Position numbers and translations under genes: made by a program
NCBI GenBank assembly: GCA_031257555.1
Contig: JAIROK010000115.1
Span: forward strand, 1-32,722
From: Campylobacteraceae bacterium
Lineage (GTDB): Bacteria; Campylobacterota; Campylobacteria; Campylobacterales; Campylobacteraceae
Direction: 5' to 3'
DNA length: 32,722 nucleotides
Notes under the pieces: model-generated
What the model was told of the DNA's origin: nothing
Databases searched by the model: none
What the model saw: the letters and a program-made list of their open reading frames with translations, nothing else
Part shown: positions 97 through 32,492 of the stretch, one piece after another
Layout: every line of letters begins with the position of its first letter
Position numbering within the stretch: the first letter of the stretch is position 1

Positions 97-116
97 ATTC
101 CCGCACAGGCGGAAAT
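97..116. repeat. dRS3-like 20-bp inverted repeat, one mismatch
   Basis: ATTCCC, eight bases, then GGAAAT, one base off the symmetric GGGAAT. It is preceded by GTC and followed by CCATG, as in the other copies. Confidence 0.6.
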
Positions 117-636
117 CCATGAAAATAAGCACAAAATGCGGGAATATCGTTTTTGTAAAAGCAAGAGGAAATTTATATATTTTTTATTTCTCTTTTTCTA
201 TTTCAATATTTTTTTAAATACTTGTAGATTCTCGCATTCCTCGCAATGAGCTTTCTACGAAAGCTATTGCTCGCGCGGGAATGACAAAGAGAGGAATGCT
301 TGAATAACGGAAAGCGAACATAGAAATAACATAGGAAGAGAGAGGCGATATACGCTTACTTCGTAAGCTTGTCGTTTGGTCGCGGGAATGACAGAATTGG
401 AATGTTGGAATGATGGAGAGCGGGCGGAGATTCCCGTTTTCAAGGAAACATTTTGCTTTCGCAAAAACGCTTCGCTTGTTTTCACGGGAATGACATAAGA
501 GAGTGCAAGAGAACAACATAAGACAGTGAAGTTTCATCCGATGGATTGCCACGCCGCAAGCGGCTCCCAATGACAGGGCAGAAGATTTGAAGATTTTACT
601 TTGTAATTGTGTTTATGAAATTCTTCGCGTTAGTGG

Positions 637-656
637 ATTCCCGCTTACGCAGGAAT
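637..656. repeat. dRS3-like 20-bp inverted repeat, one mismatch
   Basis: ATTCCC, eight bases, then AGGAAT, flanked by TGG on the left and GACG on the right, like the perfect copy at 887-906. Confidence 0.65.
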
Positions 657-886
657 GACGTAGGGAAGGTGGTGCTGAAATGATGAAAAAGAGGGGACAG
701 GAATAACACCCACCTTTTTTTCTGTCATTGCAAGCAAAGTATGGCAATTCACTTTCCTTTTTCAAAAAAATATTTAAATTTACAAGATAAACTAAAATAA
801 AGTAATTTGGTTACTTCGCATTACTTCTTTTGCAATTCCTCTGGATTGCTTCGTTGTTGCACTCCTCGTAATGACGGAAGAAATGG

Positions 887-906
887 ATTCCCGCCTACGC
901 GGGAAT
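887..906. repeat. dRS3-like 20-bp perfect inverted repeat
   Basis: ATTCCCGC, a four-base loop CTAC, then GCGGGAAT: eight perfect pairs, matching ATTCCC-N8-GGGAAT exactly. This is the best preserved copy in the window. Confidence 0.8.
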
Positions 907-1196
907 GACGGAAAGAGAGAGAAATTTTATTTGATGGATTGCCACAGTGTTGTAGGCTACTCGCAATGGCAGAAAAGAAAGTGGATCGCCACATCATGTT
1001 TCGCACCCCAAGCTCATGACAAAAAGAGGTGCTGGAACGATGTAGCAGTAGGGATTTCTGCATTTTTACCTAAAACCGCAAGTAGTTTTAAATACTATAA
1101 ATCTTACAATATATGACTTATCAAATGATGAAAAGAGGACGACACGATGCTTGCAATAACGCATAATAATTTCCGACATATCGCCGCTCCTAAATC

Positions 1197-2747
1197 TTAT
1201 CTAATCTCAAAAACTGCAATTGTACCCGAAACCTCATTTGCCGTAAGCAAAACAGTCTTGTTTACAGGACTATCTTCCGCGCTGATGACGTAAAGCCCCT
1301 CCACGCCCAAATCGCCCATTTTTGCAAGCTCCTCACTCTCAAAATTGCGCGTATTGATATAGTCGTGAAACTTGGCATTTAAAGGGTCTGTCACATCATA
1401 CATCATCACGCCGCCAAAACGCTCAAGTCCTATAAACGCATAGACTTTTTTATCTATATTTGCAACTGTAACATATTCCGGTTCGGGTCCTTTTTTACCG
1501 CTTCGGCTGTCTAATTCATTGTTTGTGTGAGAAGCGTTAAAAAATGTCGGATAATTTAGAGCGATAAACTCTTCAAAATCGCTTCCGCTGTCATATACCT
1601 GCGTCATATCATCGGTATTATAGATAGAAAATGAGCGTGCGCCCAAAAGATAATTTTTACCTGTCTCAAGCCCATCTTTTTGGCTCACATCAAGCGTTTC
1701 TATCTTTTTACCGTCAATCTTCAAGTTGTCCGTTATATCCGTATCGTCTTTCCACTCTCTTGCATCTCCTTCGTTGGCTGTCAGCAGGTATCTTGTGCCG
1801 TTTGTCTCAAAAACAGCGATTCCATCGGGCATATACGCGCCGTATATATTTTGCGTTGTGATATTTATATTGCCGTCTTTTACTGCGTCAAGAGCGATAT
1901 TGTTATAATTTTTAAAGCCAAGCGGTTTTATAGCGCTGAACTCGCCGCTTGCTATATCAAGTACGGCGATAGCGTTTGCCTCTTGCAGTGATACGTATGC
2001 CATGCCTCCGCTTACCGCTATATATTCGGGCTCAAGGTCGTTTGAGGGCAGCGCTTCTTTTCTTAGGATTACACCGCTGTCTGCCAAACTCTCTCTTTTG
2101 GTATCAAATGCTGTAAAATCAACCGTTTTTACCGTATTTGCAAAAGTATCTACAATGGTAACAGAACCTTTCGGGTCTATCGCGCCATATCCCTCTCGCG
2201 GCTCGCCCTCGTCTGCGCTCAAGATATATCTGCCATCATCTGAAAAGCAAACCATATCAGGCTGTACACCCGCTTCATACCGCTTAATAAATCCGCCTTC
2301 ATAATTCAAAATCACGATAGAACCGTTATCGGTATACTTTGTATCTTGCACCGCTAACGCGATAATGTCGTTTTTCGTATCTATATCAATGCTTGTTACA
2401 TCGCCGTAAGAGAACCCCTCTTCGTCTGCCATCGCCGCTATGTCAATCCGCTTGTACAGCTGCATTTGCGTAAAATTGTCCAAAGAGAGCATGTCGGCAT
2501 TTACTATATCAATACTTCCAAGCGCGCCGTTTACAAGATAAATCTTTTGATTGTCCTTGTTGTAGACAACGATTTCGGCTATGCCGCCGTCTTTATTGAC
2601 ACTGCCTGTAGTATAAGAGCCGATATGCGTCAAATGATTATTTATGCCGCTTTGCAAAGATGGCTTAGAATTGCCATTGGTATCAGATGAACAGCCTGCC
2701 GCCACAATCGCTATCAGTAAAACCGCTTTTTGTTTTAAAGAAAACAT
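1197..2747 (-). CDS. choice-of-anchor I family lipoprotein
   Basis: A 516-residue secreted protein. The N-terminus is a lipoprotein signal (basic residues, hydrophobic run, then AAGC with Cys19 followed by SSD), so the mature protein is probably lipid-anchored. The rest is one long beta-propeller-like domain of the choice-of-anchor I type. Recognisable family signatures are PEYIAVSGG followed by AYVSLQEANAIAVLD near residues 240-265, LTANEGDAREW near 325, and a closing LLTANEVSGTIAVFEI. Relatives are often labelled alkaline-phosphatase-like or esterase-like, but no catalytic residues can be assigned and the function is unknown. The gene stands alone between the repeat mosaic and the HAD gene, with an AAGGAGAAGC ribosome site before ATG 2747. 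Family assignment is good; role is open. Confidence 0.8.
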   Translation of the reverse strand: MFSLKQKAVLLIAIVAAGCSSDTNGNSKPSLQSGINNHLTHIGSYTTGSVNKDGGIAEIVVYNKDNQKIYLVNGALGSIDIVNADMLSLDNFTQMQLYKRIDIAAMADEEGFSYGDVTSIDIDTKNDIIALAVQDTKYTDNGSIVILNYEGGFIKRYEAGVQPDMVCFSDDGRYILSADEGEPREGYGAIDPKGSVTIVDTFANTVKTVDFTAFDTKRESLADSGVILRKEALPSNDLEPEYIAVSGGMAYVSLQEANAIAVLDIASGEFSAIKPLGFKNYNNIALDAVKDGNINITTQNIYGAYMPDGIAVFETNGTRYLLTANEGDAREWKDDTDITDNLKIDGKKIETLDVSQKDGLETGKNYLLGARSFSIYNTDDMTQVYDSGSDFEEFIALNYPTFFNASHTNNELDSRSGKKGPEPEYVTVANIDKKVYAFIGLERFGGVMMYDVTDPLNAKFHDYINTRNFESEELAKMGDLGVEGLYVISAEDSPVNKTVLLTANEVSGTIAVFEIR

Positions 2748-2844
2748 TTGCTTCTCCTTTTTTTTGGTGCGGATATTTTACGGCTCTTTGGCAACAAAGC
2801 GATTACGCGGTTTTGATAGACTAATGACGATAAAGGAGAAACGG

Positions 2845-2870
2845 GTCACTGCGAGCAAAACGTGGCAATA
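2845..2870. repeat. single diverged copy of the class B dispersed repeat
   Basis: GTCACTGCGAGC followed by CGTGGCAATA is the reverse-oriented TGCC...GCAATGAC motif of the 1-1190 mosaic. It stands alone in the gap between the lipoprotein and HAD genes. Confidence 0.5.
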
Positions 2871-2966
2871 TATCAAATACAAAATAGCTTTATTATCAAA
2901 ACTCAAATATTTTTATTATTTTTTGCAATAGTAAAAGGTTGTTAATGCTACTCGCAAATTATGGCG

Positions 2967-3614
2967 TTACTCTTTGTCTTTGCTGACATTTTTGATATAC
3001 CGCACAGCTTCAAGAGTGTCTCTTAAAATGACGTTTGTATACTGTGCCAAATCCTCTTTTTTGCCATATCCGCACAGCACGCCTGCACATTTTATATCAG
3101 CCGCTTTAGCCGCGCCCATATCTAAAATCGTATCGCCTATCATCCACGCATTTTGCATGTCACTATTCATCGCTTCCAAAGCTTTCAAAATGGGTTCTGG
3201 ATGCGGTTTGGTGCGAGTTACGTCTTCTCTGCCAACGATAACTTCAAACTGCTTTAACATGCCAAAATATTCCAATATCTCTTTCGTGTAGAGCGATGTT
3301 TTTGTCGTAACGATACCAAGCCGCGCAAATTCATATGCCTCCGTTACTGCCTCTTTTGCTCCTTTGATAAGTTTTGTCTTATCTTTAACTATAGTACGGT
3401 AATGCGCTTTGTAAGCATTTACGAATTTATCCGTATCCTCTTTTTTGATACCAAGCTCGACAAACATCTCATCAAGAGGATAACCAATGAGCGACAAAAT
3501 TTTCGAGACTTCACCAACCTCTTTGCCAAGCGTCTTAAACGCCGCAGTAAAACTTTCCGTGATTGCTTCGGTGGAGTCTATAATCGTTCCGTCCATATCA
3601 AAAAGTATAGTCAA
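2967..3614 (-). CDS. HAD-superfamily phosphatase (phosphoglycolate phosphatase-like)
   Basis: A haloacid-dehalogenase hydrolase of about 215 residues. Motif I is FDMDGTIIDST at the very N-terminus (nucleophile Asp and general acid Asp), motif II is the Thr in VTTKTS, and motif III/IV is KPHPEP followed by MIGDTILDMGAAKAA. This is the PGP/PpaX type of subfamily IA with a helical cap. The start was chosen at TTG 3614, preceded by AAGGGAG with five bases of spacing; the frame stays open to an ATG-less start at 3740, but those 42 extra residues are cysteine-rich, unlike the family, and lack a ribosome site. It is the positional equivalent of the hydrolase next to cadF in Campylobacter (recalled map). 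The physiological substrate cannot be read from the sequence. Confidence 0.85.
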   Translation of the reverse strand: MTILFDMDGTIIDSTEAITESFTAAFKTLGKEVGEVSKILSLIGYPLDEMFVELGIKKEDTDKFVNAYKAHYRTIVKDKTKLIKGAKEAVTEAYEFARLGIVTTKTSLYTKEILEYFGMLKQFEVIVGREDVTRTKPHPEPILKALEAMNSDMQNAWMIGDTILDMGAAKAADIKCAGVLCGYGKKEDLAQYTNVILRDTLEAVRYIKNVSKDKE

Positions 3615-3917
3615 ACTTTCTCCCTTAATTTGATATCCAAGCATTGGTTGACAATTCGTGCAATAAGAGTATTTTAAAAACGATAGTTTAGCACAACATT
3701 TTTGACTTTTAAGATACAAATACCAACTATTGCATATCATTGAGATTATTTAAATTGCATATAATATCTTGTTTTTCAACACAAATTGGTTACCCCAAAT
3801 CCATTGGAACTATTTTTGCAAAAACTTTATTTGTGTCATTATTTGAACTGAAATTTTGCTGACAATGCAAACAATATAGTATTTTTCCAAAAATAGAGCA
3901 AATTTGACTTGGTTATA

Positions 3918-4727
3918 TCACTTTTTTTGTGAAACTTCTACTTGCGGATATGGTATAGTTATGCCCTCTTCGTCAAATTTGAGTTTTACGACTTCATTTA
4001 GATAAAAATATACGTCCCAATAGTCATCATTTTTCACCCAAACCCTAACAGCAAAATTTACACTGCTTGAGCCAAGCTCCAAAACAGCAATTAGAGGCGG
4101 TGGGCTTTCAAGTATTCTCTGTTCTGCCGCTGCAATATCTTGTAAAATATTTTTTGCTTTTTTTAGGTTATCTTCATAACTTATACCAAATACCAAATCA
4201 ACTCTGCGTATTTTTTTACTCGAATAATTAATAATATTATTTGTAACTATCTTTGAATTAGGAATGATAATCTGTTTGTTGTCGTTTGTTTTTAAAACTG
4301 TGCTAAAGATATTTATAGATTCGACTACACCAATAATTCCTGCAATCTCTATCATATCTTTTACTTTGAAAGGTTTAAAAAAAACTATCAAAAGTCCAGC
4401 GCCTATGCTTGAGAATGAATCTCTCAAAGCCATACCTATAGCAAGACCCATTGCGCCTATAAGTGCAACGAAAGAAGTTGTTTCGACACCTAAATTTGCA
4501 AGCGCTGCAAGTACAACTACAAAAAGCAACGCCATGTAAATCGCACTGCTTAAAAACGATGCTGTTGTTTCGTCTAAAGATGTTTTGTTAATAACTTTAA
4601 CAAAAACCTTTGAAAGCCACAAGGCAACTCTTTTACCTATAAAAAATATAAGTAAAGCTCCTATGACACGAAGTCCATAGGAGCTTATGAATTCAATTAT
4701 CTGTTCTTGCTTTAAAAATTCCGTCAT
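3918..4727 (-). CDS. MscS-family mechanosensitive ion channel
   Basis: A 269-residue small-conductance mechanosensitive channel, close to the length of E. coli MscS. It has three predicted membrane helices (about residues 15-35, 58-80 and 85-110). The third is the glycine/alanine-rich pore helix with GAMGLAIGMALRDS, followed by FFKPFKVKDMIEI, which marks the start of the cytoplasmic beta domain, and a C-terminal alpha/beta cage ending in ITIPYPQ, the typical MscS ending. It should release solutes under hypo-osmotic shock from the inner membrane. The gene follows the OmpA-like gene by six bases, so the two are probably co-transcribed; no clear ribosome site precedes the ATG, suggesting translational coupling. 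Not present at this position in the Campylobacter jejuni map as I recall it. Confidence 0.9.
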   Translation of the reverse strand: MTEFLKQEQIIEFISSYGLRVIGALLIFFIGKRVALWLSKVFVKVINKTSLDETTASFLSSAIYMALLFVVVLAALANLGVETTSFVALIGAMGLAIGMALRDSFSSIGAGLLIVFFKPFKVKDMIEIAGIIGVVESINIFSTVLKTNDNKQIIIPNSKIVTNNIINYSSKKIRRVDLVFGISYEDNLKKAKNILQDIAAAEQRILESPPPLIAVLELGSSSVNFAVRVWVKNDDYWDVYFYLNEVVKLKFDEEGITIPYPQVEVSQKK

Positions 4728-4733
4728 GACAAA

Positions 4734-5795
4734 TTATTTGACGAATATAGCTTCAATCCTTCTGTTTTCAGCTCGTCCTTCAGGAGTTTTGTTGCTTGCT
4801 ACTGGTTTTTCTTCACCAAACCATTCCGTAGTTATGCGACTTCCATCAACACCTAAACGAATAAGTTCTTGCGCTACACTCTTAGCCCTTTCTTCTGAAA
4901 GTTTTATATTAAACTCTTTAGATCCAGTTGAATCTGTATGTCCTTCAATTATAACTTCATAATCTGTCTCGCTGTTTAATATTTTAGCTACAGTTTCTAT
5001 ATTGGATTTAAACTCATCAGGAATATCAGCTTCATTTGTAGCAAAATTGACTTTCAATGCAACAGATGTTATGCATCCTACATCATCTACTTTAAATTCA
5101 GCAGGAGTATTAGGGCATAAGTCATTATCGTCTGAAACTCCATCGTTATCGCTATCTACTACTGTTTCTGTTACTGCTTCCTCTTCAGTAGCAACTGTTT
5201 GTACTTCATCTTCTGTTACATTGTCTTCAGCAGGCTCTACAACTACTTCTGGATGTTTTGGCTCTTCTCCAAAAACATAAGAGACACCCAAGGTTGCAAA
5301 TATGTTATTATCACCCTCATGGCTAGTAAATTTTATAGCATGACGTAATTCTGTTCTCAAATACAAATTATCAGTAACTGTATATCTTAAACCAATACCG
5401 TAATTAACATACGGACTATCATCATTACCAAACCTTATGTCTCCTGCTTTTTTTCTGATATTCTCATATCCTGCACCGACAAGTCCGTAAAAATATGTAT
5501 TTTCACTTATTTCAAATTCTTTAATAGCATGCAAAAAATAACGGGTAAGTAATGCTTGCCATTTTTTTTGTGGAACATCGTAGTGTGTAGCTGCAAATTC
5601 TACACCGCCTTCAATTTTAGTAATAAAATTATTATCAAAATATTGACCTACCCTTAACCCTGCACTCAATTGATCTTTTAATTTAGTACTTTCCTCTGGA
5701 AAAACCCCACCAATAGTCGGAGTGATGTCATATCTGCTCTCTGCAGCAATCAAAGCACACCCTAAAGCTATAGTTATAAAAACCACCTTTCTCAT
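4734..5795 (-). CDS. OmpA-family outer membrane protein, CadF-like
   Basis: About 353 residues. There is a signal peptide, then an eight-strand-type beta barrel (roughly residues 20-175) containing EFEISENTYFYGLVGAGYE and LYLRTELRHAIKF. An acidic linker follows, then one thrombospondin type-3 calcium-binding motif (DSDNDGVSDDNDLCPNTP), and a C-terminal OmpA peptidoglycan-binding domain with EGHTDSTGSKEFN and the NRRIEA ending. The architecture and position next to the HAD gene match cadF, the fibronectin-binding adhesin of Campylobacter jejuni; in an environmental relative the role is more likely envelope anchoring. The start was set at ATG 5795 (AAGGAA, about seven bases upstream) rather than the in-frame TTG two codons earlier. 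Ortholog status is inferred from architecture plus gene order. Confidence 0.85.
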   Translation of the reverse strand: MRKVVFITIALGCALIAAESRYDITPTIGGVFPEESTKLKDQLSAGLRVGQYFDNNFITKIEGGVEFAATHYDVPQKKWQALLTRYFLHAIKEFEISENTYFYGLVGAGYENIRKKAGDIRFGNDDSPYVNYGIGLRYTVTDNLYLRTELRHAIKFTSHEGDNNIFATLGVSYVFGEEPKHPEVVVEPAEDNVTEDEVQTVATEEEAVTETVVDSDNDGVSDDNDLCPNTPAEFKVDDVGCITSVALKVNFATNEADIPDEFKSNIETVAKILNSETDYEVIIEGHTDSTGSKEFNIKLSEERAKSVAQELIRLGVDGSRITTEWFGEEKPVASNKTPEGRAENRRIEAIFVK

Positions 5796-5856: not shown

Positions 5857-7350
5857 TTATTTTTTGTCCCATTCCAAAATATTATGTGTAATTCCTATGA
5901 TTGAAGGATAAACGGGGTATATATTTTTCTTAATAACACTAAGTGTTTTTGGTATATACAAAAAAAGATATGGGTTGTCTTTTGTGATAAGCTCAAAAAT
6001 CTCTCTATAAATTTCGCCAAACTCCTCCTCATTAATTATTTTTTCAGCTTTTTTTATAAGATAATCAACTTTTTCGTTTTTGTATCCAACCAGATTAAAG
6101 CCTCCTATTTTATCAGATTCGCTATGCCAAATAGAATAAGCATCAGGTTTGATAGAAAGAGACCATCCCATCAAAAAAGCATCAAATCTTCTTGGGGCAA
6201 TAACTGTATTTAAAAATGCCTGCCATTCCATGACTCTTATTTTCATGTTTACTCCGGCACTTTTTAACTGATGCTGCAATATCTGTGCTATATAGACTCT
6301 ATGACCGGAATTTGTTACAAGTTCAAATTCAAATGGATTTTTTTCATCATATCCGGCATTTTTTAAAAGTTCACGTGCTTTTTTTATATCTTGCTTCGGA
6401 GCTTTTATTCGTGCATTAAAAGCATTGGTGCCCGGCAAAAAAGGTCCTGTGCACACATACCCTTCACCAAATAGCAAAATATCTATCAAAGCTTGTCTGT
6501 CGATGGCAAGACTTAAAGCCTCTCTTACATTTGGATCTTGAAATTTAGGAAGTTTCAGGTTAAATCCTACATACGAATAAGAGTATGATATGCTTTCATA
6601 CACACTAAATTTATTCAAAAATTCACCATCTATCTGCTTTTTGAGTTGTAACGGGGAAATATCTGCCATATCAAGTTCGCCTGACTTTAACATCAAAAAC
6701 GCAGTAGAAGCGTCAGGTACAAAGTGATAAACTATATTCTCAAACTTTGGGGAACCTAAAAAATAGTTTTTATTAGCTTCCAATATAAAATTGCTTGAGA
6801 TTGAGAAATCTTTGAGAGCAAACATTCCAGTACCTATCGGTTTTTGATTAAAAGAGCTTGTCATCAAAGAAGATTCATTTTTCAAAATATGCTCAGGCAA
6901 CAGTCCCATCATCCAAATCTCAAGAGCTCTAAAATATGGGTATTTATAGATAACTTTAATCGTGAAATCATCTATCTTCTCTATCTTCTCTACATGCTTA
7001 AAACTTTCCGAATATGGAGTAGATACTTTTGAAGATAAAATACTCTCATACGTAAAAATAACATCTTTCGCGCTAAAACGCTCTCCGTCAGACCAAAGAA
7101 CATCATCTCTTAGATAAAAAATCAGTGTTTTGTTGTCTAAAAATTTGTATGATTTGGCAAGTTCGCACTTTACAGATGCATTCTCATCATAAGTAAGTAA
7201 ACTATTAAATATAAAATACGATATTTCACCGCTTACGGTATCCGTAGCTAAAATAGGGTTTATCCTGCTTGGATTTGCACTCATCGCTATATGTAAGGAG
7301 GAGCAAAAAAGAAATTGAGTAATAAAAATCAAAAAAAATAACTTTTTCAT
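5857..7350 (-). CDS. ABC-type peptide/solute-binding protein (SBP family 5)
   Basis: A 497-residue periplasmic binding protein of the DppA/OppA family. It has a signal peptide (KKLFFLIFITQFLF), then the typical opening in which the protein lists NPILATDTVSGEISYFIFNSLL, the VLWSDGERFSAKDVIFTYE motif near residues 85-105, and the conserved PNVREALSLAIDR motif near residue 290. These are strong family markers. It would deliver a peptide, metal-chelate or similar ligand to a permease. No permease or ATPase gene is adjacent, so its partner lies elsewhere. There is no Shine-Dalgarno sequence before ATG 7350. An unusually structured leader (hairpin 7382-7445) and a palindrome over a likely -10 (7474-7499) lie upstream, suggesting regulated expression. 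The ligand cannot be predicted. Confidence 0.87.
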   Translation of the reverse strand: MKKLFFLIFITQFLFCSSLHIAMSANPSRINPILATDTVSGEISYFIFNSLLTYDENASVKCELAKSYKFLDNKTLIFYLRDDVLWSDGERFSAKDVIFTYESILSSKVSTPYSESFKHVEKIEKIDDFTIKVIYKYPYFRALEIWMMGLLPEHILKNESSLMTSSFNQKPIGTGMFALKDFSISSNFILEANKNYFLGSPKFENIVYHFVPDASTAFLMLKSGELDMADISPLQLKKQIDGEFLNKFSVYESISYSYSYVGFNLKLPKFQDPNVREALSLAIDRQALIDILLFGEGYVCTGPFLPGTNAFNARIKAPKQDIKKARELLKNAGYDEKNPFEFELVTNSGHRVYIAQILQHQLKSAGVNMKIRVMEWQAFLNTVIAPRRFDAFLMGWSLSIKPDAYSIWHSESDKIGGFNLVGYKNEKVDYLIKKAEKIINEEEFGEIYREIFELITKDNPYLFLYIPKTLSVIKKNIYPVYPSIIGITHNILEWDKK

Positions 7351-7381
7351 TGCGATATTATAACAAAAAAAGCAGGATTTA

Positions 7382-7445
7382 CATTATAGATAAAGTCGTG
7401 GTGTATTTTAAAGGATGTGAGGAAACACCACGACTCTCTATAATG
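7382..7445 (-). promoter_or_regulatory. long hairpin in the leader of the solute-binding protein gene
   Basis: An 11-base arm AGTCGTGGTGT (7394-7404) pairs perfectly with ACACCACGACT (7425-7435) around a 20-base loop. Outside it CATTATAGA (7382-7390) pairs perfectly with TCTATAATG (7437-7445), with a three-versus-one-base internal bulge. Twenty base pairs in all. It lies between the presumed promoter near 7480 and the start codon at 7350, so it would fold in the leader RNA. Seven U residues follow about 10 bases after the stem on the minus strand, so an attenuator or a protein/ligand-responsive leader is possible. No known riboswitch is recognised. Confidence 0.55.
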
Positions 7446-7473
7446 CTACAAAAAGGAGGTTTGTCATTTAGAC

Positions 7474-7499
7474 AAGTGAAATTATACACATTTTCACTT
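7474..7499 (-). promoter_or_regulatory. palindromic operator over a TATAAT -10 element
   Basis: AAGTGAAA and TTTCACTT form a perfect 8-10-8 inverted repeat. Read on the minus strand its centre contains TATAAT (7481-7486), which points toward the solute-binding protein gene. The -35 region is weak, as is common in this phylum. The layout suggests a repressor site overlapping the promoter; the regulator is not identifiable. Confidence 0.45.
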
Positions 7500-7518
7500 A
7501 ATAAATAATAAATATGGA

Positions 7519-7546
7519 GAAAAGAGCCAATAAAATTGACTCTTTG
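7519..7546 (-). terminator. rho-independent terminator of rplM-rpsI
   Basis: Immediately after the rpsI stop, the minus strand reads AAAGAGTCAAT, a three-base loop and ATTGGCTCTTT: an 11-bp stem with one G-U wobble, running into UUUU. The U-tail is short. Confidence 0.65.
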
Positions 7547-7550
7547 TATC

Positions 7551-7949
7551 TTAACGTTTTGAGAATTGAGGACTGCGGCGCGCTTTGTGTCTGCCGAATT
7601 TCTTTCTTTCAACCACACGAGAATCTCTTGTAAGAAGCCCTTTTGGTTTTAAAATTGCACGGAAGTCATCATCTAAAGCAGCCAATGCTTTTGCTATACC
7701 ATGTCTTAGCGCTTCAGCTTGCGCAGAATAACCACCGCCTCTAATATCAGCAGTAATCTCCAATAATGACTCTTGCTTTGTTAAAAGAAGAGGTTGAATC
7801 ACTTTTAGCTTTATAGCCTCATGTCCACCAAGCCAACTGTTCAAATCTACACCATTAATATTTATGGCACCTTTACCTGACTTTATCCACACTTTAGCAA
7901 CAGCTGATTTTCTTTTGCCTGTCGCATATACTTTTACTGCTTTTGCCAT
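7551..7949 (-). CDS. rpsI: 30S ribosomal protein S9
   Basis: 132 residues, the normal S9 length. The family marks are clear: [14 protein letters not shown] at the start, then [23 protein letters not shown] in the middle, [15 protein letters not shown], and a basic tail ending SPQFSKR, which in the ribosome reaches the P-site tRNA. It is a component of the small subunit head. It sits three bases behind rplM, the universal bacterial L13-S9 pair, and is followed at once by a hairpin terminator. No unusual features. Confidence 0.98.
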
Positions 7950-7952
7950 AAT

Positions 7953-8384
7953 TTATTTTCCTTCTGTTTTGCTAAATTGTGCTGTATGCGGATGTTCGCT
8001 GCCAGCATAAACTTTTAGTTTTTTAATCATAGCTTTTCCCAAAATAGTTTTCGGAAGCATGCCACGTACAGCCAGTTTATATAGTTTTACCGGATTTTTA
8101 GCCAAAAGATCCCCGAGCTTTTCACTCTTTGTACTTCCGAAATATCCGCTGTGTCTATGATAAAATTTATCTTCGATTTTCTTACCGCTAAAATCGGTTT
8201 TATCAGCATTGATGATAACAACAAAATCACCACAATCAACATTCGGCGTAAAAGACGGTTTATGTTTTCCGCGCAAAATTGTTGCTGTTTCGGTTAACAC
8301 TCGCCCAAATCGCTTTCCTTTAGCATCTATCAAAACCCAGTCTCTAACAACTTCGCTTGATTTTAAAATTTTAGTAGCGCCCAT
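7953..8384 (-). CDS. rplM: 50S ribosomal protein L13
   Basis: 143 residues, normal for L13. Recognisable marks are RDWVLIDAKGKRFGRVLTE near the N-terminus, ATILRGKHKPSFTPNVDCGD, FYHRHSGYFGSTKSE, and the VRGMLPKTILGKAMIKKLKVYAG block with the EHPHTAQ ending. It is an early-assembly large-subunit protein. First gene of the rplM-rpsI operon, with a near-consensus sigma70 promoter about 60-85 bases upstream and a leader of about 50 bases. Confidence 0.98.
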   Translation of the reverse strand: MGATKILKSSEVVRDWVLIDAKGKRFGRVLTETATILRGKHKPSFTPNVDCGDFVVIINADKTDFSGKKIEDKFYHRHSGYFGSTKSEKLGDLLAKNPVKLYKLAVRGMLPKTILGKAMIKKLKVYAGSEHPHTAQFSKTEGK

Positions 8385-8441
8385 AGTATTATGACCTTTA
8401 TCCTTGAGTTTTTAAAAAAATGATTGTATTGAAATAATTCT

Positions 8442-8470
8442 TATATAACACTTAATTTAAGCTTGTTCAA
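8442..8470 (-). promoter_or_regulatory. sigma70-type promoter of rplM-rpsI
   Basis: On the minus strand TTGAAC (8470-8465), a 17-base spacer and TATATA (8447-8442) fit the housekeeping consensus with ideal spacing. Transcription would start near 8435. Confidence 0.6.
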
Positions 8471-8496
8471 AGTAAAAATAGAGATTTTGATAGAAT

Positions 8497-11277
8497 TTAT
8501 CTTAAATCACGCAAATTAACTATAAAAGCTTCATTTTCATGCAAATAGCAAAGATACGCCTCAACTCTTTTTTTACAAATATCTTCAAGAGCATTTTTAT
8601 ACTCATTAACTTGATTTATATGAGTATCTTTCGTAAAAAATGAACTTTTATAATCAATAATTATATATTCTTCATCTTTTTCTATCAATATATCTATCTG
8701 CTTTCTTTTGCCATCATAGATGTAAGGCTGCTCTTTATAAAGAGTGCCGCCTTGAATGATATCTTGAAATTTCTCGCTTTTTATCAAATTTAAAATCCTG
8801 TTTTCTATAGATAAAAATGCCTTATCATCTAAAAGCTTCCCGTATCTATTTTTGGCACAAACAAGACTGTTTTCAAGTTCTCTTTCATTAAAATCATTCA
8901 TCATCTCCAATGTAAAATGCAATGCAAGTCCAAAATGTATATTTTCAAGAGTACCATGTATGCTCTCTTTTTCAACATTTACATTTTGTCTGCCAAATGC
9001 CAAAGCTTCATATTTTAACGTCTTTTGGACACTCTTTTGATATTTTTTTGAAGGAGTTATCTCGCCTATTTGAACCTGCTGTAGATTTAGTATTTCAAAA
9101 AATGATTTTTTTTCATTTTGTACTATGATAAGTCCATTTTTAGCACGTGTAAAAGCAACATAAAATTGGTTTAACGCATCCTCTTGATTTAGTTTTTGCT
9201 CTTTCTCTTTTACATTTTTATAATTTTTATCTACATGTTCTCTTTTGCTCATACAAACCATGATATCTTTTAGTGCAATATCCTCATAATCAAACAGCAA
9301 CAAGTCACCACCAAATCTTTCGCGCTGAATCCTGTCTGCTGCTATAACATATGCAAACTCAAGCCCTTTTGATTTATGCACAGTCAAAACTTTAACACCA
9401 TCATCATGTTCTATTGAAGATCTTTCGCTTATCATTTCACAAGAAAAAATCAAGCTTTCAATATCCTCGTACCTGCTCGCAATTTCCAAAAAATGTATAA
9501 CATCTGCATCTCTTCCGTCAAGTTTAAATTTTTCTATACATGAAACTGCAATGTGAAGCGGCTTATCATTTTTATCAAAACCCATATGACTTGGCAAAGT
9601 CTCATAATCTTCTCCTATCATTGCCACAAAATTACGTCCAAACATATCATTTTGCGTATTAAAATTTAATCTTTTTTGCTTCATTATGACTGAAAATTCA
9701 TTCCAAAACACTTTATCTTCAAAATAAATATACTTTAAAAATTCTATGACAGCTGCAACATTCGGCGAATCTTTTAAAAGTATCGTACTCTCTGTTTTTG
9801 TAGGAATATTTTGTTTTTTAAGAGCTTCTTCAACAGCCAAAACATCACTGTTAACGGCACATAAAATTGCTATTTCCTCTGCTTGAACACCCGTATCAAG
9901 CAACATTTGCACATTTTCGCATACACCAATAATAGCATTATCATATGTTGCAACTTTAGCAAAACCTCCCTCTTTTGTGACCTCTTGTATCTCATAATTT
10001 GTAATTTTATCTTTAAAAACTTCATTTACAAATTCCACAATAACTCTTTGGCTTCTATAGTTTTTTTTCAAAGAGTCAATTTGTATATCTAATTTTTTGA
10101 CTATATAATTAAAAAGCTCTTTAGCTCCGCCTCTAAAACGATAGATAGATTGCTTCGTATCACCCACATAAAAAAAACTTCTAAATTCTTTTGTCCCTAC
10201 CCCAGAGACTATTTCATGTATAATCGGCTCTAAAATCTTATATTGTACGATATTTGTATCTTGAAATTCATCTATAAGCAAATGTTCTATCGCCCCATCA
10301 AGTCTAAAATACAAAAAATCACTATCTATATGACGATACAAAAGTTCATAAACGGCATTTGTAACGTCATCAAACAAAAGCTCATTTGTCATTTTTGCAT
10401 TTTGAAATCTGGTATTTTTATAAATAGTAAAAAGAAAAAACAACTCTCCTTTTAAATAACGCTCCTTTTGTATATAAAACTCTTTTAATGCCTTTTTTAG
10501 CTTATCAAACATCTCATCAAGTTCAACTGTATAAATTTTTTTATATTCCCAGTAATTAAGACTGTCTTTTAGCCAAAAATTTTTCGCAATAAGTTTAGAT
10601 AAATTATCAGCATCAAAAGTTTTTATTGCATTTTCACTTGCATTTAAACTCTTTAATTTTAGCTTTATCTCATCTGCAATTTGAAGGATACTCTCTTCGC
10701 TTGGTATACTGATTCTATCAAATTTCCATTTGTCTATTTCACTATTTTTCTCATACATTAAAGATAAGAATTTAAAAAAATCTCTCAAGCTGTTTTGTCC
10801 TGATATCACAAAATGCAAAAGAGATTTATAGACATTAAATCTTTTTACGTTTTGCAAAAAAAGCTCTTGAAAACGTTCCGCATCATAAATAGAACCGCTG
10901 TTAAAATCCGGCATAAGTCCAAGATGCAAAGCAAATTTCCGTAAAACTTGCCCAAAAAATGAATCTATTGTAGAAATTTTAATATTTGCTTCGAGAAAAT
11001 GTGGCAATATTTTATTTTTTTTCTCTAAAATATCTTCTTTACTAAGCCCTAAAATAGCACTAAGCTCATCTAATTCAGCCTTGTGGTTTTCCAAATTTTG
11101 CAAAGTGTGGTAAACTCTGTGCTGCATCTCATTTGCCGCTTTTTTTGTAAACGTGAGAGCTAATATATTGGAAGCCTTAGCACTTTTTAGTAAAAGTGCG
11201 ATGTATCTTATGCTAAGCGCAAATGTTTTGCCGCTCCCAGCACTTGCATTTAGAGCTAAACAATTGATAAATTTCAT
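8497..11277 (-). CDS. addA: AddA/RecB-like helicase-nuclease
   Basis: About 926 residues. A UvrD/RecB superfamily 1A helicase fused to a C-terminal PD-(D/E)XK nuclease. Seen in order: Walker A NASAGSGKT (residues 10-18), motif Ia LTFTKKAANEM, motif II LLIDEFQDTN, motif III VGDTKQSIYRFRGG, motif IV KKNYRSQ, motif V LTVHKSKGLEFAYV, motif VI YVAFTRAKNG, and the nuclease motif QIDILI...YIIIDYKSS near the C-terminus. With AddB it processes double-strand ends for RecA loading. Length fits the short AddA of Campylobacterota. The start was set at ATG 11277, whose ATGA overlaps the addB stop and which has GGGAG eight bases upstream; an in-frame TTG at 11292 is less likely. Confidence 0.92.
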   Translation of the reverse strand: MKFINCLALNASAGSGKTFALSIRYIALLLKSAKASNILALTFTKKAANEMQHRVYHTLQNLENHKAELDELSAILGLSKEDILEKKNKILPHFLEANIKISTIDSFFGQVLRKFALHLGLMPDFNSGSIYDAERFQELFLQNVKRFNVYKSLLHFVISGQNSLRDFFKFLSLMYEKNSEIDKWKFDRISIPSEESILQIADEIKLKLKSLNASENAIKTFDADNLSKLIAKNFWLKDSLNYWEYKKIYTVELDEMFDKLKKALKEFYIQKERYLKGELFFLFTIYKNTRFQNAKMTNELLFDDVTNAVYELLYRHIDSDFLYFRLDGAIEHLLIDEFQDTNIVQYKILEPIIHEIVSGVGTKEFRSFFYVGDTKQSIYRFRGGAKELFNYIVKKLDIQIDSLKKNYRSQRVIVEFVNEVFKDKITNYEIQEVTKEGGFAKVATYDNAIIGVCENVQMLLDTGVQAEEIAILCAVNSDVLAVEEALKKQNIPTKTESTILLKDSPNVAAVIEFLKYIYFEDKVFWNEFSVIMKQKRLNFNTQNDMFGRNFVAMIGEDYETLPSHMGFDKNDKPLHIAVSCIEKFKLDGRDADVIHFLEIASRYEDIESLIFSCEMISERSSIEHDDGVKVLTVHKSKGLEFAYVIAADRIQRERFGGDLLLFDYEDIALKDIMVCMSKREHVDKNYKNVKEKEQKLNQEDALNQFYVAFTRAKNGLIIVQNEKKSFFEILNLQQVQIGEITPSKKYQKSVQKTLKYEALAFGRQNVNVEKESIHGTLENIHFGLALHFTLEMMNDFNERELENSLVCAKNRYGKLLDDKAFLSIENRILNLIKSEKFQDIIQGGTLYKEQPYIYDGKRKQIDILIEKDEEYIIIDYKSSFFTKDTHINQVNEYKNALEDICKKRVEAYLCYLHENEAFIVNLRDLR

Positions 11278-27298: not shown

Positions 27299-27457
27299 GA
27301 AATTTTTGCTGTCTTTTTGAAATCCGAGTTGCTTTTTAAACTTAATGCTTGTCTTCTACTCTATCTTGAGCATCTAACATCAAAAGAAGCCAGAAATGCC
27401 ATAACTGCTCCATTGAAAATGCAAGAGAAATGGAGCAAAAAATATGCAAATAAGTAA
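27299..27457 (+). pseudogene. C-terminal remnant of a Mu-type gemA gene
   Basis: An open frame with no proper start codon. After a stop near 27293-27295 it encodes about 52 residues ending in the block YLEHLTSKEARNAITAPLKM, then QEKWSKKYANK. This resembles the C-terminus of GemA/Gp16 (DUF1018) proteins, where a Leu-Thr-x-x-Glu-Ala segment leads into a helix with Lys-Met. Its stop lies 14 bases inside the mor-like gene, reproducing the gemA-mor order of phage Mu. The N-terminal two thirds are missing, so it is a broken gene. Recognition is by pattern and context, not by alignment. Confidence 0.45.
27406..27437 (+). promoter_or_regulatory. hairpin sequestering the mor-like ribosome site
   Basis: TGCTCCAT (27406-27413) and ATGGAGCA (27430-27437) are exact reverse complements around 16 bases. 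The right arm contains GGAG, the ribosome site eight bases before the mor-like ATG 27444. Ribosomes reading the gemA remnant frame would open it, so it may couple translation of the two frames. Confidence 0.45.
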
Positions 27458-27653
27458 CGAAGACCTTTTTATACAGTTTTACGAGTGTATGAGAAAAGAC
27501 GCAACTATAAATGAAGTCTACAAAAACTTCGGCGGCGGCAATATTTATATACCTTCTTTTAAAAGTCTTGGGCGAAATGCTGAAATAGTTGCCGAATATG
27601 ACAAACGTATACAAGATGGACAGGACAAAACAGAGCAACAAGAGAGCTTGTAG
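27444..27653 (+). CDS. short Mor-like transcription activator of a Mu-type prophage
   Basis: 69 residues. The segment INEVYKNFGGGNIYIPSF, then RNAEIVAEYDK, matches the pattern of the Mor/C family of Mu-like phages, in which a Gly-Gly-x-x-Tyr-Ile-Pro strand precedes a helix beginning Arg-Asn. Normal Mor proteins run beyond 100 residues and end in a helix-turn-helix; here the frame stops soon after the Arg-Asn helix, so the DNA-binding part is missing. It overlaps the gemA-like remnant by 14 bases. GGAG precedes the ATG. Probably a truncated relic; it could still be expressed but should not activate transcription alone. Confidence 0.55.
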   Translation: MQISNEDLFIQFYECMRKDATINEVYKNFGGGNIYIPSFKSLGRNAEIVAEYDKRIQDGQDKTEQQESL

Positions 27654-27669
27654 TAGAGTACCTTACTTA

Positions 27670-27687
27670 CTTTATAACATTATAAAG
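27670..27687. promoter_or_regulatory. perfect 8-2-8 palindrome before the Sel1 gene
   Basis: CTTTATAA-CA-TTATAAAG, 89 bases upstream of the Sel1-lipoprotein start. No T-run follows, so it is more likely an operator than a terminator. Confidence 0.35.
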
Positions 27688-27775
27688 ACAAATAAAGAGC
27701 AACCAACGCTTTTTTAATGCCTTTTTAAAACCCTTTAAAATATAATTTAAAATTAAAATTTCAAATGAATTAAAA

Positions 27776-28819
27776 ATGATAAAATACATTTTAATACTTT
27801 TAGCATTAGCGGGATTATTTGGCGGCTGTAATGCCAAAAAAGAAAATATAAATACACATCAAGCCGCTTGTGATGCAGGCAATATAAGCAGTTGTAACTA
27901 TTTGGCAGAATCCTATAAGCGGGGAGATAATGGACTAAAAGTCAACTATGAAATAGCAGCGCAATACTTTATGAAAGCTTGTGATATGCAAGATGCATTT
28001 GGATGCATTAGAGTAGCAGATATTTATTATTTTGATAATCTTGGCGAGGATAAGCTTGCAGCAAAACCATACTATGAAAAAGCACTTAAATATTATTACA
28101 ACGCTTGTATAAAAAAAGATATGAAAAGCTGCGGAATGGTTGGGAATATACATGCAGATGGCATAGGTATTCCAAAAGATGCTTTTTCTGATTTTGTTGC
28201 ATTATCATTTTATGAAGCTGCTTGTGATGGTGGAGAGTTTGAATATTGCTACACAACTGGTTCTTATTACTTAAAAGGCAAGGGAGTACCTCAAAATATT
28301 ACAAGAGGATTGGAGTATTGGGATAAAGCTTGCAATGAAGATGAAACTGGTTATTCTTGTTATGAAATAGGGAAAACCTATTATGTAGGTAAAATTGTTT
28401 ACAAAAATATGGTTAAAGCTAAAGAGTTTTTTAAAAAAGGATGTAAACGGCATAAATTTAATGGATGTAAAGAACTTAAAAGTTTGGAAGCTTTTGGCGA
28501 ATATCTTCAAGAAGTAACAGATGCAGAGTCTGATATTTATAGTTTTTATGATTTATACCATCAAGAATACGGGGATAGAGAATATACATGCGAAAGTAAA
28601 GTGCATAACAAATTATTTTTAGTAAGATGCTATCCTAAGAACTCTAATTATATAGGAAATGTTTTTGTTGTAGAGATTGCAAAACCCGATAGTAATAATG
28701 TTAATAAGTATAGAATAAAAGCTGCAAATGAGATATCATTTAATTCGGTAGAAGGGGTATTTAAACGATACAAAAATGATATACCTATAAGCGAGTTGGT
28801 TAAAATTTTTAATGATTAA
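27776..28819 (+). CDS. Sel1-repeat cysteine-rich lipoprotein
   Basis: 347 residues. The lipoprotein signal ends in FGGC (Cys18). Residues about 30-235 form roughly five Sel1-like repeats, each with a Cys pair seven residues apart (ACDAGNISSC, ACDMQDAFGC, ACIKKDMKSC, ACDGGEFEYC, GCKRHKFNGC), the pattern of Helicobacter cysteine-rich proteins. About 110 residues follow with no recognised domain, with two more cysteines in YTCESKV and VRCYP. It should be periplasmic or membrane-anchored and disulfide-bonded. First gene of a tight four-gene plus-strand cassette inside a prophage remnant, overlapping the nuclease gene by eight bases. No clear ribosome site. Sel1 proteins usually mediate protein contacts; the target is unknown. 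Confidence 0.82.
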   Translation: MIKYILILLALAGLFGGCNAKKENINTHQAACDAGNISSCNYLAESYKRGDNGLKVNYEIAAQYFMKACDMQDAFGCIRVADIYYFDNLGEDKLAAKPYYEKALKYYYNACIKKDMKSCGMVGNIHADGIGIPKDAFSDFVALSFYEAACDGGEFEYCYTTGSYYLKGKGVPQNITRGLEYWDKACNEDETGYSCYEIGKTYYVGKIVYKNMVKAKEFFKKGCKRHKFNGCKELKSLEAFGEYLQEVTDAESDIYSFYDLYHQEYGDREYTCESKVHNKLFLVRCYPKNSNYIGNVFVVEIAKPDSNNVNKYRIKAANEISFNSVEGVFKRYKNDIPISELVKIFND

Positions 28820-29177
28820 GATATTTTTTGCTCTATTTATTCCTATTTTTTTATTTGCCGATATAACAGGCAAAGTGCTAAAGGCAACCGACGGAGACAC
28901 TATAACAATCCTAACAGACAAAAAAGGACAAATAAAAGTACGCTTTGACAGCATAGACGCACCCGAATCCAAACAAGCATACAAAGAGGCAAGCAGAAAA
29001 AATTTTACCGCCTTTTGCATAGGAGAAAGCGCAACGATAGAATATAAAGGACAAGATAGACATGAGCTAAAATACGGTGAACAATATGTAAAGCTGAAAA
29101 AAAAGGCTAAAAAAAGTCTTTGGCAGGACAATAATCAACCCCCCCATGGGAGTGGAGAAAAAAGAAAAAATGATTGA
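28812..29177 (+). CDS. degenerate secreted staphylococcal-nuclease-like protein
   Basis: 121 residues. A signal peptide (about 1-16) is followed by the SNase domain start: GKVLKATDGDTITIL, then VRFDSIDAPESKQ, which holds the equivalents of catalytic Arg35 (R44), Asp40 (D49) and Glu43 (E52). The usual DRYGR block, with the second catalytic Arg, is cut to DRH, and about 25-30 residues of the fold are missing before KYGEQYVKLKKKAKKSLWQDN. After that the frame runs through a tract of seven C (29139-29145) and reads PPHGSGEK instead of the expected PPWEWRKK, which is present in another frame whose TGA overlaps the next gene's ATG. So one internal deletion and one frameshift: probably inactive. It overlaps the Sel1 gene by eight bases. 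Confidence 0.75.
   Translation: MIKIFFALFIPIFLFADITGKVLKATDGDTITILTDKKGQIKVRFDSIDAPESKQAYKEASRKNFTAFCIGESATIEYKGQDRHELKYGEQYVKLKKKAKKSLWQDNNQPPHGSGEKRKND
29139..29145 (+). repeat. C7 homopolymer tract at a frameshift point
   Basis: Seven consecutive C near the 3' end of the nuclease-like gene. Five or eight C would restore the frame that reads PPWEWRKKK and ends in an ATGA overlap with the following gene. Homopolymer C/G tracts are slippage sites in Campylobacterota, though usually longer than seven. Confidence 0.6.
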
Positions 29178-29646
29178 TACAACGATAGACTTAAATACAA
29201 TAATAACAGTAATAGTCTTAATAATAAGTTGGTACTATTTCAGAAAACAGATAAAAAGCTCAAAAGAACAAATCAACTTTTTCAAAGAACGGGATAAAAA
29301 ACAGCAAGAGGAGCAGCTTGAACAAGAACGGATTAGAGAAATTGACTATTTGATTGACCTTCTTACAAGAATAAAAAACTTTTTGGACAATTCTTATTTT
29401 TGTTACAAAAAGGAAAACGAAGATATTGCTAATATGTTAAGAGAGAGCGAACATATTGTAATAACCTATTATAAAGAGCAGTTATTAAGTGATTTCAACG
29501 ATTTTAAAGAACACGCAAAGCAAACAATGGAAAAATTAAAAGACTTGAAAACTTATTCAAGTTCACAAAATGACATAGATAATCTTAAATTGGCGCATAA
29601 AAAAATAATAGAAAAACTTTCAAAGGAGAAAGAAAAATGGCTTTAG
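29169..29646 (+). CDS. membrane-anchored coiled-coil protein of unknown function
   Basis: 158 residues from ATG 29169. One N-terminal membrane helix (about 7-24, IITVIVLIISWYYF) is followed by a highly charged, Lys/Glu/Gln-rich helical region with a coiled coil (about 28-60) and further helices to the end. No enzyme motif is seen. The start was chosen at 29169 because the restored frame of the nuclease gene would end in an ATGA overlap there, and GGAG lies upstream (12 bases); ATG 29146 would prepend eight residues that derive from the nuclease C-terminus. It ends in a ten-base overlap with the zinc-ribbon gene. Orientation probably puts the coiled coil in the cytoplasm. Confidence 0.7.
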
Positions 29647-30176
29647 TTAAATGTCTTGGATGCGGAAGCGACGTAGACTCTGGTGCAAAAGAGTGTCCAA
29701 AATGTGGAAAAAAACACCCTACAATTCCCTTCTCAAAATGTGTTTCATGCGGTAAAGAGGTAGATTATGACGCAAAAGTCTGCCCTCATTGCGGTAAAGA
29801 ATCTCCTACTGTCAGCGGTAAACAGATGCTTATAGCATTTATTGTTTTTGTGGTTATTATAGGGTTGTTTGTAACTATGTGTTCAGATGACGATACGCCT
29901 AAAGTACCACTCACGGAAAAGCAAATAGCAGATAAGCAATTTAGTCAATGGGATGGCTCAAATATTTATGTTACACGGAGAATAAAAGAATCTATGAATG
30001 ACCCCGATAGTTACAGCCATGTAAAAACACTCTACTCTTACAATAATGTAACCAAAACAATTGAGGTAAGAACAAAATTCAGAGGCAAAAATGCATTCGG
30101 CGGCACCATTATGAATACTGCAATAGCAACGGTTGATCTAGACGGCAACATTAAATATTTTGATGTGGTATATTAG
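29637..30176 (+). CDS. double zinc-ribbon membrane protein
   Basis: 179 residues. Two zinc ribbons lie at the N-terminus: CLGCG...CPKCGKK (Cys6, 9, 20, 23) and CVSCG...CPHCGKE (about Cys35, 38, 49, 52), each of the Cys-X2-Cys type. One membrane helix (about 64-82) and a C-terminal domain of about 80 residues follow, with YVTRRIKESMNDPDSYSHVK and FRGKNAFGG. That domain recurs in zinc-ribbon proteins of phages and plasmids but I cannot name a function. Good ribosome site (AAAGGAG). It overlaps the coiled-coil gene by ten bases and meets the phage gene gpG tail to tail with overlapping stop codons. Confidence 0.78.
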   Translation: MALVKCLGCGSDVDSGAKECPKCGKKHPTIPFSKCVSCGKEVDYDAKVCPHCGKESPTVSGKQMLIAFIVFVVIIGLFVTMCSDDDTPKVPLTEKQIADKQFSQWDGSNIYVTRRIKESMNDPDSYSHVKTLYSYNNVTKTIEVRTKFRGKNAFGGTIMNTAIATVDLDGNIKYFDVVY

Positions 30177-30640
30177 TGCAATAAACTCTCAAATTTTTTA
30201 TTCAGCGCATTCTCTATTAAAACAACCAATTTATCGGAGAGTGCGCCCTCATCCGTTATCGGTAAAAATCGTCTTTTTGTTATCTTCTTACTATTGCTTC
30301 CGAATTGATGAACCGCAGGATACGCATAACCTTTTGCGGCTGCATTTGTACCGATAAAGGCAGTATTATCTTTTACGTCCCACGCCGTTCTATCCTGCAA
30401 AGTCCCCTGATGATAGAGTATTATACCCTTACCTTTTTTGGCTTTAAGAGTTACATCTGATAGTTTTTTCCATTTGACGCCCGTTACGAGATCACTTTCT
30501 GCCTCATACGCCTTTACCACTTCATTATAAATCGGTCTTGCGATATGCTCTCCCAATATGTTTTTTGGATTTTTAGCAAAAATCTGAATATTACGAAAAA
30601 TCCTATTGATATTCTCCAAACCTTTTATCGTTATTGCCAT
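30173..30640 (-). CDS. Mu gpG-like phage virion morphogenesis protein
   Basis: 155 residues, the normal length of the family. The N-terminus has the helical ITIKGLENINRIFRNIQIFAK, then LGEHIARPIYNEVVKAYEAES, the WKKLSDVTLKAKKGKG segment, LYHQGTLQDRT, and YPAVHQFGS with a C-terminal KITKRRFLPIT. These are the marks of the phage virion morphogenesis family (PF05069), represented by Mu gpG, involved in tail completion and head-tail joining. AAAAGGAG precedes ATG 30640. No other head or tail gene is near, and it faces opposite to the gemA-mor remnant, so it is a stranded prophage gene after rearrangement. The frame is intact. Confidence 0.85.
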   Translation of the reverse strand: MAITIKGLENINRIFRNIQIFAKNPKNILGEHIARPIYNEVVKAYEAESDLVTGVKWKKLSDVTLKAKKGKGIILYHQGTLQDRTAWDVKDNTAFIGTNAAAKGYAYPAVHQFGSNSKKITKRRFLPITDEGALSDKLVVLIENALNKKFESLLH

Positions 30641-31255: not shown

Positions 31256-32492
31256 TTAATTTTCCTTAAATTCCTCACCAAGCCTATAAGCCAAAAAGAT
31301 TAAAATGCCACACCTAAAACCAAAGCTATCCAAATTGCCCATTTGGGCACAACAAAACCGCTCTTTTTTTCTATTTTTACTTCAAGCGCCTTTTCGCCGC
31401 TAAGCTCTACAGCGTCCCCTGTCTTTACTATTGGTATATAATTGATATCAACATCTTTCAAAAAATCAGATGAGCACAAATCAAGCGCGTTGGCTCCGTA
31501 AGAGCCGTAAGCTAAGATAAACGGCGCGTTATTTGCGCTGTTGAAAACAATATCTACCCTTTTTCTATAAATGCTAAGTTTCGGTATATTGGCAAAACCG
31601 CCGTTAATCTTTAGCATAAACTCTTTGGTAAAAATGCTCTTTTGAAGTTTGATATCTGCTTTTTCGTTTACGATATGCCTCTCAAGCTTTATCCATTTAT
31701 CGCCGTCTTTGTAAAAAATATTCAAAGGAAGTATCAAACTTTTCTGTCCCAAATCAACAAACAGACCTCTACAGGTTGAATAGATGGGAGTTTATATATT
31801 AGAGCGTCATCTATGTTTTCTTGATATTTTGCTTTTAACTCAACAAACGACCTCTCCGTATATTGTTCGCTTGCATATGCCCTAACGGAGGTGATTTTGG
31901 GTATTTTTACATCCGAAGTTATGATAAGCTGCCAGCCTTCGGTATCGCTGTCATAATCATAATCTTCTATCCTTATCTTATCCGCTCTTAAACTGCTCTC
32001 ATTTGACACGTCTTTGAGTTCTGCGAGTAAAACTCCGCGCACAGCCGTATAGTAGCCAAATTCAACATCCGCTTTGGCTTCCCAATTATAATCCGCACTA
32101 TTCCAATCAAGCTCAAGATACGACACATAATCCCCTTCATTTAAGAGCTTTATGCGGTATGTGTAGGTATATACGACTCCGCGTGTGGTATTGTTCATTT
32201 TTTCATTTATAAAATACAAAGTTACGGGAATCTACTGCGTGATATTTTCTATCTTTTCCACATCTACAAACGAAAAAGCCACCGCTTGGTCGTTTGCGTT
32301 AAAAACTGTCGCATCTTTGAGCAACGGCGAGAGAGTATTTAGATAAACCTCATCCGGAATTTCCACTCTGCTGAATATCTGCCCGCTCTGCGCATTTAAT
32401 TCCAATCCGTAAGCGTAATCAAACGAACTTTGCGCGGCAAGAAAAGAGTTCAAAAACAGTGTAAACGCCAAAACAGATATACTTTTTTTCAT
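31256..32492 (-). pseudogene. DUF3999 membrane protein gene, broken in three places
   Basis: Read on the minus strand, ATG 32492 begins a signal peptide and N-terminal domain (MKKSISVLAFTLFLN...). The frame then meets TAG at 32234-32232 and continues in the same frame as IPVTLYFINEKMNN. It shifts near 31765-31770, where the earlier frame ends at 31734 while another frame continues from VDLGQKSLILP. It shifts again near 31300: the running frame stops after VLGVAF, but a neighbouring frame gives GILIFLAYRLGEEFKEN and a stop at 31256, a natural tail after the single C-terminal membrane helix. Together these make a DUF3999 protein of about 410 residues. Overlaps DUF2339 by four bases. Pseudogene unless sequencing errors are involved. 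Confidence 0.75.

What the first reader, a model, noticed from the sequence alone, without database searches (positions are those of the whole stretch)
27776..30176. Compact four-gene envelope cassette between prophage fragments: candidate undescribed system
Sel1 cysteine-rich lipoprotein, secreted SNase-like protein, membrane-anchored coiled coil and zinc-ribbon membrane protein overlap each other (8, about 4 in the ancestral frame, and 10 bases). All are secreted or membrane-linked and none is a phage structural protein, so they look like prophage cargo. A periplasmic nuclease with a sensor lipoprotein and membrane partners could act on incoming DNA (superinfection exclusion or defence). The function is not shown.
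Basis: inference. Interest (0 to 1): 0.6.

Follow-up and report, generated by a model that had tools for sequence, protein, structure and literature searches.

The report
Prophage cargo with Orf97-type exclusion protein
Four small envelope genes sit in the remains of a Mu-like virus in a Campylobacteraceae genome; they are not a conserved four-part system, but the last one carries the same domain as phage 186 Orf97, a protein recorded to block phage infection, so it probably helped the resident virus keep rivals out.

Summary
In detail: four same-strand, overlapping ORFs (27776-30176) lie between a Mor-type activator remnant (27444-27717) and a convergent Phage_tail_S/gpG gene (30173-30640). 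They are cargo in a decayed Mu-like prophage. One four-gene system is not supported. In relatives the genes occur singly: the Sel1 lipoprotein directly behind an S24 repressor in one species; the TM and C-terminal part of the zinc-ribbon protein beside the same convergent gpG in another; intact SNases behind an S24 repressor in this genome's other Mu-like prophage and behind Mor in a third; gene 3 nowhere in 100 relatives. None of 149 loci with the gene-4 domain had the cassette. The SNase here is about 28 residues short, lacks the catalytic Arg87 segment and is frameshifted, so it is very likely dead. The new lead is gene 4: its C-terminal domain (residues 99-172) belongs to the phage 186 Orf97 family (PHROG 3403), and GenBank records that Orf97 'expression from plasmid blocks 186 infection'. 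The domain is widespread in phages on interchangeable membrane anchors, often behind repressor or Mor genes. Best reading: superinfection-exclusion cargo; the entry step is inferred. Gene 4 shows purifying selection. No function was tested.

The parts
27444..27717 (+). Mor-like late transcription activator, pseudogene (reading continues through two frame changes)
   Evidence: phrog_6119 E 2.6e-9; 46% to intact G001 Mor-like gene; frames
27776..28819 (+). Gene 1: Sel1-repeat lipoprotein, 347 aa, with its own C-terminal domain (about residues 236-347)
   Evidence: PF08238 E 2.9e-18; 69% ortholog behind an S24 repressor in G006
28812..29177 (+). Gene 2: secreted SNase remnant; Arg35 and Glu43 kept, Arg87 segment deleted, frameshift before PPWEWRK
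   Evidence: alignment with intact paralog L003:6291-6743 and staphylococcal nuclease
29170..29646 (+). Gene 3: N-terminal TM plus coiled coil, orphan
   Evidence: coding score; no relatives in 100 genomes, viral contigs or phages
29637..30176 (+). Gene 4: double zinc ribbon (residues 6-53), TM (61-81), Orf97-type C-domain (99-172)
   Evidence: model pLDDT 90 with C-domain 96-98
30173..30640 (-). gpG / Phage_tail_S virion morphogenesis gene, convergent with gene 4 (4-base overlap)
   Evidence: PF05069 E 1e-6, phrog_26 E 3e-10; same pair in G007

Best explanation
The cluster is accessory (moron) cargo in the slot between the Mor activator and the convergent head/tail genes of a Mu-like prophage that has since decayed. 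It was assembled from separately mobile envelope genes and is not a conserved machine. Gene 4 is the core still under selection: zinc ribbons inside the cell, one inner-membrane helix, and an Orf97-type domain facing the periplasm. Most likely that domain stops related phages from entering the lysogen by interfering with genome passage at the inner membrane (superinfection exclusion). Gene 1, a periplasm-facing Sel1 lipoprotein, probably has a similar exclusion or envelope role. Gene 2 was a secreted nuclease and is now dead. Shown: gene anatomy, prophage setting, loss of the nuclease's catalytic segment, homology to Orf97, separate mobility. Inferred: topology, expression in the lysogen, exclusion in this host, the entry step, gene 1's role.
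For: Gene 4 residues 89-168 match 186 Orf97 (43%, E 1e-7) and 99-172 match homologues in LPM4 and VHML; GenBank note on Orf97: 'expression from plasmid blocks 186 infection'. All 74 aligned viral members match phrog_3403. The domain sits directly behind S24 repressors divergent from MuA in Mu-like prophages (L056; L057 similar with another repressor), behind repressors in BK070146 and L043 and behind Mor in L176 and L222. Of 53 same-strand upstream neighbours 11 match a phage repressor family and 5 Mor. The domain is also fused to a Sel1 lipoprotein (L055), which supports a periplasmic domain. dN/dS about 0.06 for gene 4 and 0.23 for gene 1 against nearest relatives. Intact SNase and the gene 1 ortholog lie directly behind S24 repressors.
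Against: The Orf97 phenotype rests on a GenBank note from plasmid expression; in 186 the gene is in the LexA-controlled SOS operon, not a lysogeny operon. The N-terminal parts of gene 4 and Orf97 are unrelated. The prophage is decaying, so this copy may no longer be expressed. No background rate was computed for the neighbour counts. Synonymous sites are near saturation, so the gene 4 dN/dS is rough.
Confidence: 0.55

Rival explanations
1. The nuclease part of these cargoes serves to block natural transformation (and so prophage loss by recombination), as the DNases of Campylobacter prophages CJIE1, CJIE2 and CJIE4 do, not phage exclusion.
For: Prophage DNases that inhibit transformation are known in this family (PMC7291426, PMC8955182); intact secreted SNases lie in Mu-like prophages of this genus.
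Against: The copy in the window is dead; SNase is a different search result from dns/nucA, whose sequences were not compared here; says nothing about gene 4.
Confidence: 0.2
2. The cluster is simply dead prophage debris with no present function.
For: Mor out of frame twice, SNase deleted and frameshifted, no MuA/MuB in the window.
Against: Genes 1, 3, 4 and gpG are open and codon-like; genes 1, 4 and gpG show purifying selection against relatives, though this may predate the decay.
Confidence: 0.18
3. One reading: the four products work together as one exclusion system, with the lipoprotein as sensor and the nuclease as effector on incoming DNA.
For: Tight overlaps and shared envelope location.
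Against: Genes occur separately in relatives; no cassette among 149 loci with the gene-4 domain; nuclease inactive.
Confidence: 0.04
4. Gene 4 and the retained gpG form a pair that interferes with virion assembly of incoming phages.
For: The same convergent pair with the same 4-base overlap stands at another locus in G007, and gpG is constrained.
Against: The G007 contig ends about 0.6 kb past gpG, so the rest of a prophage may follow; there is no direct evidence for interference.
Confidence: 0.03

Closest known systems
Orf97 of coliphage 186 (PHROG 3403; also VHML ORF47 and an Aeromonas phage LPM4 protein)
   Same: Homologous C-terminal domain behind a membrane anchor; carried by temperate phages; the LPM4 protein also has an N-terminal zinc ribbon plus TM
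   Different: 186 Orf97 has another N-terminal region and lies in an SOS operon with tum; gene 4 lies behind Mor in a Mu-like remnant
HK97 gp15 and P22 SieA superinfection-exclusion proteins
   Same: Phage-encoded inner-membrane proteins that block entry of related phages (from literature titles and general knowledge)
   Different: No sequence match of gene 4 to an exclusion-labelled PHROG among those listed; only the anchor region of one relative, L220, matches such families
Campylobacter prophage DNases dns (CJIE1) and nucA (CJIE2/CJIE4)
   Same: Nucleases encoded by integrated elements of this family, acting on DNA outside the cytoplasm (PMC7291426, PMC8955182)
   Different: Family relation to SNase not tested; the window copy is inactive
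SNIPE (PMC13190303)
   Different: SNIPE is one inner-membrane protein with a cytoplasmic GIY-YIG nuclease; here a separate secreted SNase, now broken

Membership tests
Orf97 family (PHROG 3403) | Conserved C-terminal domain (FSxWDGSH, MNDPDSYEHV, FRGKNAFGG) | tested here: met
   phrog_3403 E 8.2e-16; alignments A1 and A3
Orf97 family (PHROG 3403) | Membrane anchor in front of the domain | tested here: met
   one TM helix, residues 61-81
Orf97 family (PHROG 3403) | Homology over the N-terminal part of 186 Orf97 | tested here: not met
   match covers profile positions 162-233 of 243 only; N-termini vary widely in the family
Orf97 family (PHROG 3403) | Blocks phage infection when expressed | not testable with these tools
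   recorded for 186 Orf97 only
Staphylococcal nuclease (SNase) enzymes | Catalytic Arg35, Glu43 and Arg87 in a full-length frame | tested here: not met
   Arg35 and Glu43 present, Arg87 segment deleted, frameshift
Sel1-repeat lipoprotein | Sel1 repeats behind a lipoprotein signal | tested here: met
   PF08238, three stretches; lipobox-like N-terminus by eye
Mu-like prophage | Mor-type activator and gpG-type morphogenesis gene | tested here: met
Mu-like prophage | MuA/MuB transposition genes present in the element | tested here: not met
   absent from the window; present in the other prophage of this genome
Known or candidate defence systems (PADLOC-DB 2.0.0) | Significant model match | tested here: not met
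   no convincing match for the four proteins; single scattered matches among 74 gene-4 relatives
Conserved four-gene system | Co-occurrence of the four genes in other genomes or phages | tested here: not met
HK97 gp15 / SieA-type exclusion proteins | Sequence membership | tested here: not met
   gene 4 hits no exclusion-labelled PHROG among the 25 listed; similarity of mode is inference

The most novel reading that the evidence does not exclude
The Orf97 C-terminal domain is an overlooked, very widespread phage exclusion module that faces the periplasm and is swapped onto many membrane anchors (zinc ribbon-TM, SHOCT-TM, two-TM, Sel1 lipoprotein). It is carried in repressor- or Mor-linked slots, sometimes with secreted nucleases, to guard the entry route of the lysogen.
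Probability: 0.35. Interest if true: 0.7.

Novelty: new member of a known kind. Interest (0 to 1): 0.45.

Why it matters
It ties an unnamed prophage gene to a little-noticed but recorded phenotype (186 Orf97 blocks infection) and shows that the same domain is present at 233 or more viral-contig loci with varied anchors. That makes a directly testable family of likely superinfection-exclusion proteins, and it corrects the idea of a four-gene nuclease system.

Tried and rejected
A conserved four-gene operon: rejected. Active nuclease: rejected for this copy. Relatives of gene 3: none found. Viral relatives of gene 1 and of the intact SNase by back-translated patterns: none. PDB by sequence and by fold for gene 4: nothing reliable; BFVD gives E <= 1e-3 matches only to phage lipoproteins, a zinc-ribbon protein and uncharacterised proteins. 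Single-sequence model of gene 1: too poor to use (mean pLDDT 52). Literature on Orf97, on thermonuclease-based exclusion and on Sel1-based exclusion: no mechanism found. Promoter scan of the region: not above a clear chance level. Empty-site test with the host flanks: not run.

Full report
What is there. The window is contig C57 of a 63% complete genome; its near relatives are Campylobacteraceae MAGs (record titles). Four plus-strand ORFs run from 27776 to 30176 with overlaps of 8, 4 (ancestral frame) and 10 bases. All score as coding in frame by host codon usage, and ORFs of 158 aa or more arose in 6 of 1000 shuffles. Gene 1 is a Sel1-repeat lipoprotein, gene 3 a TM + coiled-coil orphan, gene 4 a double zinc ribbon + TM + C-domain protein.

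Setting. Just upstream is a Mor-like gene, 46% to an intact 95-aa homologue in G001. Its similarity continues through two frame changes to about 27717, so it is read as a pseudogene. Just downstream, convergent, is a gpG/Phage_tail_S gene. In G001 an intact Mor-like gene is followed by an intact SNase and then by a minus-strand gene that I take to be a tail gene. So the slot behind Mor is a cargo site of these Mu-like phages, and the window holds a decayed remnant.

The nuclease is very likely dead here. The same genome holds an intact SNase in another Mu-like prophage, directly behind an S24 repressor with a 4-base overlap and divergent from MuA and MuB. Against it, gene 2 keeps Arg35 and Glu43 but is about 28 residues short between shared landmarks, which removes the Arg87 segment, and it is frameshifted before PPWEWRK. 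The frameshift lies at a C-run and could be a sequencing error; the internal deletion is harder to explain that way. An SNase also lies directly behind an S24-type repressor in Moraxella phage Mcat8, and near one in Curvibacter phage TJ1, which has a transposase.

The genes travel separately. Gene 1 has a 69% ortholog in G006, directly behind an S24 repressor and without genes 2-4. Its C-domain is clear only there among 153 family genomes. Gene 4 has an ortholog in G007 at another locus, beside the same convergent gpG with the same 4-base overlap and without genes 1-3; the zinc ribbons are missing there. Gene 3 has no relatives found. Among 149 loci with the gene-4 domain none has the set; an SNase-like gene is nearby in three, two of them from the same contig.

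Gene 4 and Orf97. Residues 89-168 match the C-terminus of phage 186 Orf97, and similar stretches match proteins of VHML, LPM4 and others. Orf97 carries the GenBank note 'expression from plasmid blocks 186 infection'; in 186 it lies with tum in the LexA-controlled SOS operon. A profile search found 233 viral loci, of which 80 were kept; all 74 members aligned match phrog_3403. Anchors vary: zinc ribbons in at least 14, SHOCT in 4, others two-TM or lipoprotein-like. In G004 the domain is fused to a Sel1 lipoprotein behind a repressor remnant, which links genes 1 and 4 in theme and supports an extracytoplasmic domain. Of 53 same-strand upstream neighbours, 11 match a phage repressor family and 5 Mor; no background rate was computed for these counts. 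The predicted C-domain is one helix and four strands at pLDDT 96-98, without a reliable PDB match. Relatives also occur in cellular genome contigs of many phyla, whose prophage status was not tested. dN/dS against the nearest relative is about 0.06 for gene 4, 0.13 for gpG and 0.23 for gene 1; synonymous sites are near saturation for gene 4 and gpG, so these are rough.

Mechanism. Most likely gene 4 protects the lysogen from related phages at DNA entry. The steps that rest on inference are topology, expression in the lysogen, the entry step, and any help from gene 1. The main caveat is that the Orf97 phenotype comes from plasmid expression, and I found no readable study of its mechanism. A 2024 review of superinfection exclusion held in the library does not mention phage 186 in its text.

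Comparison. By mode it resembles HK97 gp15 and SieA; by sequence it is not shown to be one of them. The nuclease idea resembles Campylobacter prophage DNases that block transformation (PMC7291426, PMC8955182) and SNIPE (PMC13190303), but the nuclease is of another or untested family and inactive here.

Noticed in passing
L003 (G000:C47) 1-5713 and 6291-11195: The other Mu-like prophage of this genome lies next to genes that look like a type I cas operon (read from sequence, not searched).
   Followed up: no
window 31300-32492: The host gene right of the remnant (resembles DUF3999) is split over three ORFs, so frameshifts, real or from assembly, cluster at this end of the contig.
   Followed up: no
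L055 (G004:C24) 6351-7133: A Sel1 lipoprotein whose C-terminus is the Orf97 domain, behind a PH/SHOCT-like protein and an S24 repressor remnant.
   Followed up: partly
L081 14183-19267 and L087 7382-9636: Behind S24-type repressors of other prophages lie further accessory genes (membrane protein, restriction-like protein, others): the repressor-linked slot seems a general cargo site.
   Followed up: partly
window 30173-30640; L054 10092-10559: A gpG gene is kept open and constrained beside gene 4 although the window shows no other virion gene.
   Followed up: partly
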